Below, piece after piece: positions 57,101-61,683 of a stretch of DNA of 64,000 nucleotides (position 1 is its first letter; every line of letters begins with the position of its first letter). The notes under the pieces are model-generated. The model did no database searches, was not told where the DNA came from, and worked only from the letters and a program-made list of their open reading frames with translations. The position numbers and the translations under genes were made by a program. Source of the DNA: Ornithodoros turicata. Lineage: Eukaryota; Arthropoda; Arachnida; Ixodida; Argasidae. The stretch covers positions 1,273,000-1,336,999 of the forward strand of contig NW_026999404.1 in the NCBI RefSeq assembly GCF_037126465.1. Direction: 5' to 3'.

Positions 57101-60100
57101 GATGAGACAATTAAACATAGACGGGCAAACACAGCACAAGCTTCACAACGTCTGTATGGATGTGACTATAGCAACAATGTAAGTGCCTGTCCATGTGTTT
57201 CCTAGCGTAGCTTGGTATGCACATGCACTGAGGTATGGTACCGCTATTGTTGCGGTGAATCACCTCATCCCATAATCATTCATGTAGTAGTTGTTGTTGT
57301 TGTTGAAGAGGGGGTAACTAGCATGGTGAAATTGGTAGCATCTCTGACCGGCAATCAGAGGGTGCGCGTTCGAATCCCACTTCCGATGCCTTTCACTCCA
57401 ACGGCGATGATTCAGTTTCACGAGGATGTTACGCGACGTATAGGTGGAGCTTCGGCTGAAGCGTTTGCTCACCATTTTCACTCCATTTGGCCTTCTGCAA
57501 AATCCTTTAAAAACAGCGCTGAGAGCCCCTTCCCTCTTTTTTTCTTTTTGTTGTTTTTGTTGGTGGTGGTGGTTGGACAACGTTCAAAGGAAGAGGAGTC
57601 AGGTTCGTTGTTGTTCGCTTTTGACTGCAGCGTACTGCTCAAGAAATAACGTGTGGCCCGTGCAAAAACGATTATAGTAGTTTGTCTGGAAGCGCATGCG
57701 TGAGGTCTTGATGTGCAGTGGCGGATCTAGGATTTTCCTGAGGGGAGGGGAGGGTGGTCCGCTGTGGAACGGTGCCACGTGCATGCTAGGATAGGTCCAC
57801 TGAACCCTATGTTCAAGTCTGGAATTGAGGGGGGGCGGACCCCTGAACCCCCCCCCCCGCCCCCCAGACCCGCGCTTGTTGATGTGCACGCCCTCTTGAA
57901 ACCCCACCCTCCTGTGGTGAGCCTGTAAATGGATGAGTGGAACTCTCCACGTCACGCGGTGACGTGGAAAGGTCCCTGCGAGTATAGCGCAGTGACGAGC
58001 TCGTGGCGGGCCAATTTCCAGCGAGATCTCGCGGCTGCTCCCCAGCCGATATTACGTCACACGAACGTGACTAGGTCACGCCAAGAGATTAGGTTGCACT
58101 GCCCCGCTCATAGATGCTGTTTCAGGGCGTTTCTGTAAATTGAATTGCGCGGAGACAAGGCACCGTACAGCGATAATATTGCGCATGACGCGTACGGAGC
58201 GAGTGACGCACGCCTCTGTTGCTATATTCGTCGACCACAAATATCTGTTAGAACGTGCCGATACTCTTCTTTCCTGTGGTTCCTGCGTTCCTTCATTCCA
58301 GATACCATTAAAATGTTCACGTAAATTTAGTGTGATGGATAATGTCCCAAAAATTTATGCGAGCTGCTCATACGCCACCTTGTCTGCCGCACGACGACCA
58401 TGGTTCTGTCTACTTCTCGGAAAACGCGCCCAGACGCGCGCGAATATCTGTAGTCGACAGATTCCGGCGTACGCCCTCCGCGCGCGTTGAAAAACTGGTT
58501 TTTACGAGTGAAAAAAAATAGCATAGAGGCTCTTTGGCTGCACGTTGAACATATGTTTATAAGTCCCAAACGTCGCCACACCAGCATTGGACAGCTGTTT
58601 CGGCCTTATTGGGCCTTCATCAGCAATGCGTAGGTGGGCGACGTTTGAGCGAGTGGCGTCAGAAGGTCACGTGGAACGTGATGTCCTCCCGTCAGGGTGA
58701 GAAACTCACCTCTGAAAGCCCAGTGCGAAGCCAGTAAAGTATTAAGTGAAAAAAAAATAGCATAGAGGCTCTTTGGCTGCACGTTGAACATATGTTTATA
58801 AGTCCCAAACGTCGCCACACCAGCATTGGACAGCTGTTTCGGCTTTATTGGGCCTTCATCAGCAATGCGTAGGTGGGCGACGTTTGAGCGAGTGGCGTCA
58901 GAAGGTCACGTGGAACGTGATGTCCTCCCGTCAGGGTGAGAAACTCACCTCTGAAAGCCCAGTGCGAAGCCAGTAAAGTATTAAGTGAAAAAAAAATAGC
59001 ATAGAGGCTCTTTGGCTGCACGTTGAACATATGTTTATAAGTCCCAAACGTCGCCACACCAGCATTGGACAGCTGTTTCGGCCTTATTGGGCCTTCATCA
59101 GCAATGCGTAGGTGGGCGACGTTTGAGCGAGTGGCGTCAGAAGGTCACGTGGAACGTGATGTCCTCCCGTCAGGGTGAGAAACTCACCTCTGAAAGCCCA
59201 GTGCGAAGCCAGTAAAGTATTAAGTGAAAAAAAAAATAGCATAGAGGCTCTTTGGCTGCACGTTGAACATATGTTTATAAGTCCCAAACGTCGCCACACC
59301 AGCATTGGACAGCTGTTTCGGCCTTATTGGGCCTTCATCAGCAATGCGTAGGTGGGCGACGTTTGAGCGAGTGGCGTCAGAAGGTCACGTGGAACGTGAT
59401 GTCCTCCCGTCAGGGTGAGAAACTCACCTCTGAAAGCCCAGTGCGAAGCCAGTAAAGTATTAAGTGAAAAAAAAATAGCATAGAGGCTCTTTGGCTGCAC
59501 GTTGAACATATGTTTATAAGTCCCAAACGTCGCCACACCAGCATTGGACAGCTGTTTCGGCCTTATTGGGCCTTCATCAGCAATGCGTAGGTGGGCGACG
59601 TTTGAGCGAGTGGCGTCAGAAGGTCACGTGGAACGTGATGTCCTCCCGTCAGGGTGAGAAACTCACCTCTGAAAGCCCAGTGCGAAGCCAGTAAAGTATT
59701 AAGTGAAAAAAAAAAAAAAAGCATAGAGGCTCTTTGGCTGCACGTTGAACATATGTTTATAAGTCCCAAACGTCGCCACACCAGCATTGGACAGCTGTTT
59801 CGGCCTTATTGGGCCTTCATCAGCAATGCGTAGGTGGGCGACGTTTGAGCGAGTGGCGTCAGAAGGTCACGTGGAACGTGATGTCCTCCCGTCAGGGTGA
59901 GAAACTCACCTCTGAAAGCCCAGTGCGAAGCCAGTAAAGTATTAAGTGAAAAAAAAATAGCATAGAGGCTCTTTGGCTGCACGTTGAACATATGTTTACA
60001 AGTCCCAAACGTCGCCACACCAGCATTGGACAGCTGTTTCGGCCTTATTGGGCCTTCATCAGCAATGCGTAGGTGGGCGACGTTTGAGCGAGTGGCGTCA

Positions 60101-61683: not shown

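What the first reader, a model, noticed from the sequence alone, without database searches (positions are those of the whole stretch)
58509..60193. Seven-unit hammerhead ribozyme array flanked by an 11-bp duplication: a retrozyme-like insertion
Each 239-bp unit carries a full type I hammerhead on the minus strand (CUGAUGA, GAAA, UC cut site, three helices). GTTTTTACGAG sits at both ends, which suggests the multimer landed in one event, for example from a rolling-circle or circular-RNA template. Self-cleavage would release 239-243 nt monomers. Metazoan retrozymes with this design are known as a class. This family, host gene and insertion may be new.
Basis: partly seen in the sequence, partly recalled or inferred. 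Interest (0 to 1): 0.9.

Follow-up and report, generated by a model that had tools for sequence, protein, structure and literature searches.

The report
Ribozyme array carrying Penelope insertion marks
A tick genome holds thousands of copies of a short repeat with a predicted self-cutting RNA (a hammerhead ribozyme), here seven in a row between two copies of an 11-base target sequence; the places where copies begin and the way they face each other match the genome's own Penelope retroelements, so Penelope enzymes likely write these repeats into DNA, which would help settle how such animal repeats move.

Summary
58509-60193 is 7.05 units of 239 bp, each with a predicted type I hammerhead on the minus strand, between exact copies of GTTTTTACGAG. 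The hammerheads score below Rfam's gathering cut-off (one extra A in the core); units of a sister array pass it. The host is almost certainly the soft tick Ornithodoros turicata, whose genome has 4334 matches to the hammerhead pattern. In 60 array segments at 37 loci, 53 of 60 3' ends (ribozyme-sense RNA) lie at one of two internal sites, A or B, about 43 nt apart (5' ends: 7 of 60). Opposite-strand arms are always head to head (18 of 18) and, where both outer ends are classed, pair one A with one B in 11 of 13. 35 of 60 3' ends abut (TA)n; six of ten loci outside (TA)n have 11-14-nt target duplications. Penelope-like elements (PLEs) of the same genome show two ends about 40-47 nt apart, the same polarity and (TA)n junctions, and five PLE ends share their (TA)n with a retrozyme end. 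So this is a metazoan retrozyme, most likely inserted by PLE machinery, probably from circular RNA. PLE mobilisation was proposed in print; I found no paper with this junction evidence. No RNA or enzyme data were available.

The parts
58509..60193 (-). retrozyme array F1, 7.05 units of 239 bp; strand is that of the hammerhead
58498..58508 (+). target duplication, left copy GTTTTTACGAG
60194..60204 (+). target duplication, right copy GTTTTTACGAG
58584..58629 (-). hammerhead type I, 28.2 bits
58823..58868 (-). hammerhead type I, 24.5 bits (one G>A in stem II)
59062..59107 (-). hammerhead type I, 28.2 bits
59302..59347 (-). hammerhead type I, 28.2 bits
59541..59586 (-). hammerhead type I, 28.2 bits
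59784..59829 (-). hammerhead type I, 28.2 bits
60023..60068 (-). hammerhead type I, 28.2 bits
58509..58518 (-). 3' end of the array in ribozyme sense, at site B (U run and CA); inferred start of cDNA
58551..58558 (-). AAACATAT that marks site A (example in the first unit; used as 3' end by 29 of 60 segments elsewhere)
   Evidence: read
60152..60192 (-). 11-bp repeat x3.7 at the 5' end of the array, possibly made while the junction formed (inferred)

Best explanation
This is a seven-unit array of a short repeat with a predicted hammerhead ribozyme in every unit (a metazoan retrozyme), flanked by an 11-bp target duplication, and it was most likely written into the tick genome by Penelope-like (PLE) enzymes copying a probably circular RNA. 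Shown by sequence: the array, the hammerhead motif, the duplication, two fixed 3' ends A and B about 43 nt apart across sister copies, head-to-head arms, (TA)n junctions, and the same geometry in PLEs of the same genome. Inferred: the array is transcribed; hammerheads cut the transcript into monomers of about 239 nt, which a host ligase closes into circles (shown by others for metazoan retrozymes, not here); PLE protein cuts AT-rich DNA on both strands; each free 3' end primes cDNA at A or B of the RNA; cDNA runs several times round the circle; two cDNA arms then join head to head, or one arm joins the other flank, as in the window.
For: 53 of 60 3' ends at A or B against 7 of 60 5' ends, Fisher P 3e-18; 25 of 29 in the second set, counted. 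18 of 18 opposite-strand neighbours head to head; A+B in 11, A+A 1, B+B 1, one end elsewhere 5. (TA)4 within 30 nt of 35 of 60 3' ends and 10 of 60 5' ends. Direct repeats of 11-14 nt at 6 of 10 loci outside (TA)n; longest in 90 mismatched pairs is 10. PLEs: 150 of 150 scored GIY-YIG matches over the cut-off, of 3506 first-look candidates; neighbours under 10 kb 34 '-+', 1 '+-'; three of four PLE families seen with two ends about 40-47 nt apart, both at (TA)n, one on each arm in L032 and L051. Five of seven PLE 3' ends share their (TA)n with a retrozyme end. Published PLE behaviour fits: two internal start sites, AT-rich cutting, both strands extended (PMC11167929); inverted copy, 31-bp tail on one of them, head-to-head junctions (PMC3846280 passages).
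Against: No RNA, circle or enzyme was observed. Retrozyme and PLE tails are not alike in sequence: 15 of 16 comparisons not significant, the sixteenth rests on a T run. The window's own target is not (TA)n. Four of ten non-(TA)n loci show no duplication of 11 nt or more. Nearness of PLEs and retrozymes could come from a shared liking for (TA)n. The limits of classes A and B were set after both sets had been seen. A+B pairing is only moderately significant (about 0.01). L044 and L034_35 have mixed units, against a one-unit circle as template. L046 carries a PLE whose 3' end showed neither hammerhead-like motif nor (TA)n in 620 nt.
Confidence: 0.75

Rival explanations
1. A retrozyme moved by a LINE-type retrotransposon through ordinary target-primed reverse transcription, the inverted arms made by twin priming as in L1.
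For: Target duplications of 11-14 nt and scattered 5' ends fit LINEs too. The window holds a LINE-like RVT_1 ORF at 24586-25071.
Against: In L1 twin priming the outer end of the inverted part is variable (recalled); here both outer ends of bipartite inserts are at A or B in 13 of 18. Two fixed start sites, and their presence in PLEs, are unexplained.
Confidence: 0.12
2. PLE machinery, but with an uncleaved linear multimer as template; the ribozyme is a passenger or acts elsewhere.
For: The Anolis PLE inserted RNA with catalytically dead hammerhead as well (PMC11167929). In L044 a 2-bp insertion sits in the fifth unit of both arms only, as from one multimer, or from copying between arms.
Against: 9 of 15 loci have a private variant in at least 80% of units, as expected from a one-unit circle; a homogeneous parent array could give the same.
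Confidence: 0.25
3. Satellite-like expansion by unequal exchange after a short insertion; the array did not land as a multimer.
For: Homogeneous units and an array up to 33 units long fit local expansion; the flanking duplication would survive it.
Against: Head-to-head arms with fixed outer ends, and dispersal over many contigs, need an insertion mechanism; expansion would only add units.
Confidence: 0.1
4. The hammerhead of this subfamily is dead (extra core A) and the window copy is a relic of an older active element.
For: All seven score under Rfam's gathering cut-off.
Against: The same core stands in the hundreds of units fetched, in arrays with few differences between units; an active viroid hammerhead has an extra core nucleotide (title in a reference list; its position is recalled).
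Confidence: 0.12

Closest known systems
Metazoan non-LTR retrozymes (Cervera and de la Pena 2020, PMC7229834; parts 1-4 of 6 read)
   Same: Type I hammerhead per unit, tandem units of 170-400 nt, no LTR, target duplications longer than 4 bp, strongly self-paired RNA; PLEs in the same genome
   Different: Host is a tick, not named in the parts read; GC is 49.8% (text: under 50%, figure legend: under 45%); double start sites, head-to-head arms and (TA)n junctions are not described in the parts read
Penelope-like elements (Frangieh 2024 PMC11167929, parts 1-2 of 4 read; Arkhipova group 2013 PMC3846280, passages)
   Same: Two internal start sites with a tail of about 30-47 nt between, AT-rich targets, head-to-head arms, one tail per pair, minimal hammerhead
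   Different: PLEs code for reverse transcriptase and endonuclease; the array has no open frame of 120 aa or more. Duplications 11-14 nt here, 8-10 bp in the rotifer passages
Plant LTR retrozymes (PMC4918200; listing and abstract start only)
   Same: Non-autonomous, hammerhead-bearing, circular RNA
   Different: Type III hammerheads, LTRs, 4-bp duplications (as told in PMC7229834)
Chrysanthemum chlorotic mottle viroid hammerhead (title of De la Pena and Flores 2001 in a reference list)
   Same: An extra nucleotide in the hammerhead core
   Different: A viroid, not a genomic repeat; position and kind of the nucleotide are recalled, not read

Membership tests
Type I hammerhead ribozyme | Match to the Rfam type I model at its gathering score | tested here: not met
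   28.2 and 24.5 against 34 in the window; sister units at L043 reach 36.9
Type I hammerhead ribozyme | Core CUGANGA, GAAA, cut after GUH, three helices | tested here: met
   All 7 units match the model end to end at E 0.005 or better, with one extra A in the core
Type I hammerhead ribozyme | Self-cleavage | not testable with these tools
   Needs in vitro transcription
Metazoan non-LTR retrozyme | Tandem units of 170-400 bp, each with a type I hammerhead, no LTR | tested here: met
   absence of LTRs by reading
Metazoan non-LTR retrozyme | Dispersed copies with target duplications | tested here: met
Metazoan non-LTR retrozyme | GC under 50% (text) or 45% (figure legend) | tested here: inconclusive
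   49.8%
Metazoan non-LTR retrozyme | Strongly self-paired unit RNA | tested here: met
   z -4.8 linear, -5.1 circular with single-letter shuffles
Metazoan non-LTR retrozyme | Linear and circular monomer RNA in tissue | not testable with these tools
   No RNA data
Penelope-like element (membership) | ORF with reverse transcriptase and GIY-YIG endonuclease | tested here: not met
   No open frame of 120 aa or more in the array; so it is not a PLE, only works like one at insertion
Penelope-type insertion (works like) | Two adjacent internal start sites giving an optional tail | tested here: met
   PLEs of the same genome
Penelope-type insertion (works like) | Head-to-head arms with a tail on one arm | tested here: met
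   18 of 18 head to head, 11 of 13 A+B
Penelope-type insertion (works like) | AT-rich targets | tested here: met
   35 of 60 3' ends at (TA)n; not the window copy
Penelope-type insertion (works like) | Sequence shared with the PLE between the two start sites | tested here: not met
   15 of 16 comparisons not significant
L1-type LINE insertion | One fixed 3' end, variable outer end of the inverted part | tested here: not met
   Two fixed 3' ends; both outer ends at A or B in 13 of 18

The most novel reading that the evidence does not exclude
Animal retrozymes are to Penelope elements what SINEs are to LINEs: a PLE dimer cuts AT-rich DNA on both strands and primes cDNA at two fixed places on a ribozyme-made RNA circle, one per strand, writing head-to-head rolling arrays. 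Small perfect hairpins of a sister family, joined at the palindrome that begins at the hammerhead cut site, are genomic footprints of ribozyme cleavage in the animal.
Probability: 0.55. Interest if true: 0.85.

Novelty: new variant of a known kind. Interest (0 to 1): 0.72.

Why it matters
Which enzyme moves animal retrozymes is open: the 2020 paper calls PLEs a strong candidate from shared hammerheads, tandem copies and co-occurrence (PMC7229834), and a review of that year says that the repeats show no conserved motif pointing to a partner (PMC7761336, passage). Insertion junctions give such a pointer here, in a genome with thousands of copies and PLE frames that are still open. The question becomes testable with one purified tick PLE protein and retrozyme RNA, and the same end count can be made in mussel, coral and axolotl.

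Tried and rejected
Shared sequence between retrozyme and PLE tails: looked alike by eye (CGT..AGCC), rejected by shuffling. A conserved stem just past site A: predicted for F1 and F2, not for F3 and F4, and in none more stable than shuffles; only sequence blocks are conserved. Hammerhead cut site as the usual 5' end: rejected, 5' ends are scattered. (TA)n as old target or as slippage product: not decided. L1-like twin priming: disfavoured. PLE minimal hammerheads were read by eye only; cmscan at E up to 5 did not report them. Rfam microRNA matches, mostly on (TA)n or inverted repeats, were set aside. Dropped before the count: three segments cut off by stretch ends (one in L064, both of L066) and the 26-kb relative in the window. 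The ten loci were picked by eye as having both ends in view and no (TA)n. Paper searches (library of open PMC papers) listed none whose title or abstract start tells of PLE-type junctions in retrozymes; most listed papers were not opened.

Full report
What is there. The window holds an array at 58509-60193, 7.05 units of 239 bp, between exact copies of GTTTTTACGAG. Each of the 7 units has a predicted type I hammerhead on the minus strand. Scores of 28.2 bits (six) and 24.5 (one) miss Rfam's gathering score of 34; by reading, the core has one extra A after CUGAUGA. An extra core nucleotide is known from a viroid hammerhead (title in a reference list; position recalled). At L043, one A shorter in loop II, five of six units reach 36.9. 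By reading, helix III is two pairs under an AGCU loop, which the 2020 paper calls typical of invertebrates. The unit RNA folds better than shuffles, z -4.8 linear, -5.1 circular against single-letter shuffles. No open frame of 120 aa or more overlaps the array.

Host. A metallopeptidase ORF of the window is 99% identical over 88% to an Ornithodoros turicata protein; the genome held has 1.07 Gb.

A mobile family. The hammerhead pattern, up to 3 mismatches, has 2488 forward and 1846 reverse matches in the genome, control 0. Units of one array share variants: 9 of 15 loci have at least one variant in 80% or more of their units that occurs in at most one other locus; mean distance 2.2 within and 3.9 between loci; 0 of 500 label shuffles as low. 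The window's units carry a CT and a T that the other loci's units printed lack, two indel-bearing units aside. This favours one template per array. Against a one-unit circle: in L044 a 2-bp insertion sits only in the fifth unit of each arm, and L034_35 and L042 are mixed.

Ends. Numbering the RNA from the hammerhead cut, I mapped 60 segments in 37 loci. 3' ends: 29 at site A (about 39, after AAACATAT), 24 at site B (about 82, after the U run and CAC), 7 elsewhere. 5' ends in the same ranges: 3 and 4, elsewhere 53. Fisher P 3e-18. In the second set alone it is 25 of 29 (counted); the class limits were set after both sets had been seen. Opposite-strand neighbours are head to head in 18 of 18. 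Of these, 11 pair A with B, one A with A, one B with B, five have one end elsewhere; 11 or more of 13 has a chance of about 0.01. In the first 100 listed matches on C1 (34 clusters) all 8 mixed clusters have the same polarity. Four TA repeats lie within 30 nt of 35 of 60 3' ends and 10 of 60 5' ends (P 4e-6). Of ten loci outside (TA)n, picked by eye, six have exact direct repeats of 11-14 nt, some with junction microhomology; the other four have 4 to 9; the longest in 90 mismatched pairs is 10. The window is one of the six, a single-arm insert that ends at B.

Penelope elements. The GIY-YIG model has 3506 first-look candidates; 150 were scored and all 150 pass its cut-off. Neighbours under 10 kb are 34 '-+' and 1 '+-': ORF 3' ends outward, as in the retrozymes. 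Five GIY-YIG matches at four loci lie within 2.5 kb of 39 listed retrozyme points, 0.03 expected if placed at random. PLE coding pieces occur in 7 of the 41 sources searched: L032, L043, L044, L045, L046, L049, L068. L049 has RVT_1 and GIY-YIG on separate frames. L043 has an 877-aa open frame with RVT_1 over its cut-off and GIY-YIG at 17.9 bits, under its cut-off of 22.6, and a 60% identical O. turicata protein that carries both domains. Of eight PLE 3' regions long enough to read, seven reach (TA)n and L046 does not; six of the seven have a minimal hammerhead-like motif with GAAAC 89-157 nt before the (TA)n, in L044 that motif is altered. In five of the seven the other side of the (TA)n is a retrozyme 3' end: L043 and L049 (B), L045 and L068 (A), one arm of L032 (B of sister family F2). 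Three of four PLE families were seen with two ends about 40-47 nt apart, both at (TA)n; in L032 and in L051 the two arms carry one each.

Match with what is known. The Anolis PLE protein starts cDNA inside the RNA at two adjacent sites, which explain the optional 30-40 bp tail, prefers AT-rich DNA, and cuts and extends both strands (PMC11167929). Rotifer Penelope inserts have an inverted pLTR, a 31-bp tail on one of the inverted copies, duplications of 8-10 bp, and mostly head-to-head junctions (PMC3846280, passages). The retrozymes show the same design but code for nothing, so they are not PLEs. Their tails are not alike in sequence: the link rests on geometry, target and nesting.

Mechanism. 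Likely: transcription, hammerhead cutting, ligation to a circle, capture by PLE protein, staggered cutting of AT-rich DNA, priming at A or B on each strand, several rounds of cDNA, joining. Only the DNA products are shown. An uncleaved multimer as template is not excluded.

Sister families. Four families share, in ribozyme sense, the blocks GTGCAGYCA after site A and ACTGGCTT-G-AC further on. Two F2 hairpins, at L032 and L045, consist of two A-to-cut pieces joined at the 8-bp palindrome CAGTACTG that begins at the hammerhead cut. They fit cDNAs that ended at the 5' end of cleaved RNA; joining at the palindrome alone could give the same, and a genome-wide count did not complete.

Noticed in passing
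window about 25600-26290: Two other retrozyme relatives side by side: family F3 (hammerhead 25849-25893, plus strand, unit of about 288 bp) and a degenerate, inverted F2 relative of the array (hammerhead motifs on both strands near 26085-26126 and 26232-26276).
   Followed up: partly
L032 5530-5650; L045 3930-4000: Perfect F2 hairpins made of two site-A-to-cut pieces joined at the palindrome at the hammerhead cut; possible footprints of ribozyme cleavage.
   Followed up: partly
L045 2088-3087: A further divergent retrozyme family (F4, 239-bp units) with the same conserved blocks.
   Followed up: partly
window 16174-16280: A near-perfect hairpin (30-nt arms checked, one mismatch, 7-base loop) ending in GCACGAAAG; a similar GCACGAAAGT stretch lies in the PLE 3' region of L046. 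It may be a head-to-head PLE junction.
   Followed up: no
L069 543-1623: Next to the retrozyme arms, host sequence appears twice in opposite orientation (AGCGTGCTATGTGGTGAAGTTCAT and a diverged inverse), as if host DNA had been captured at insertion.
   Followed up: no
L052 500-700: A short retrozyme insert with a 13-nt direct repeat and a filler of imperfect target copies at its 5' junction, comparable to the 11-bp repeat at 60152-60192 in the window.
   Followed up: no
G000 C6:8171687-8177572 and others: Head-to-head pairs of PLEs with open frames of about 928 aa; PLEs look recent in this tick.
   Followed up: partly
window 47017-47176: A perfect TAA microsatellite, 53 copies.
   Followed up: no
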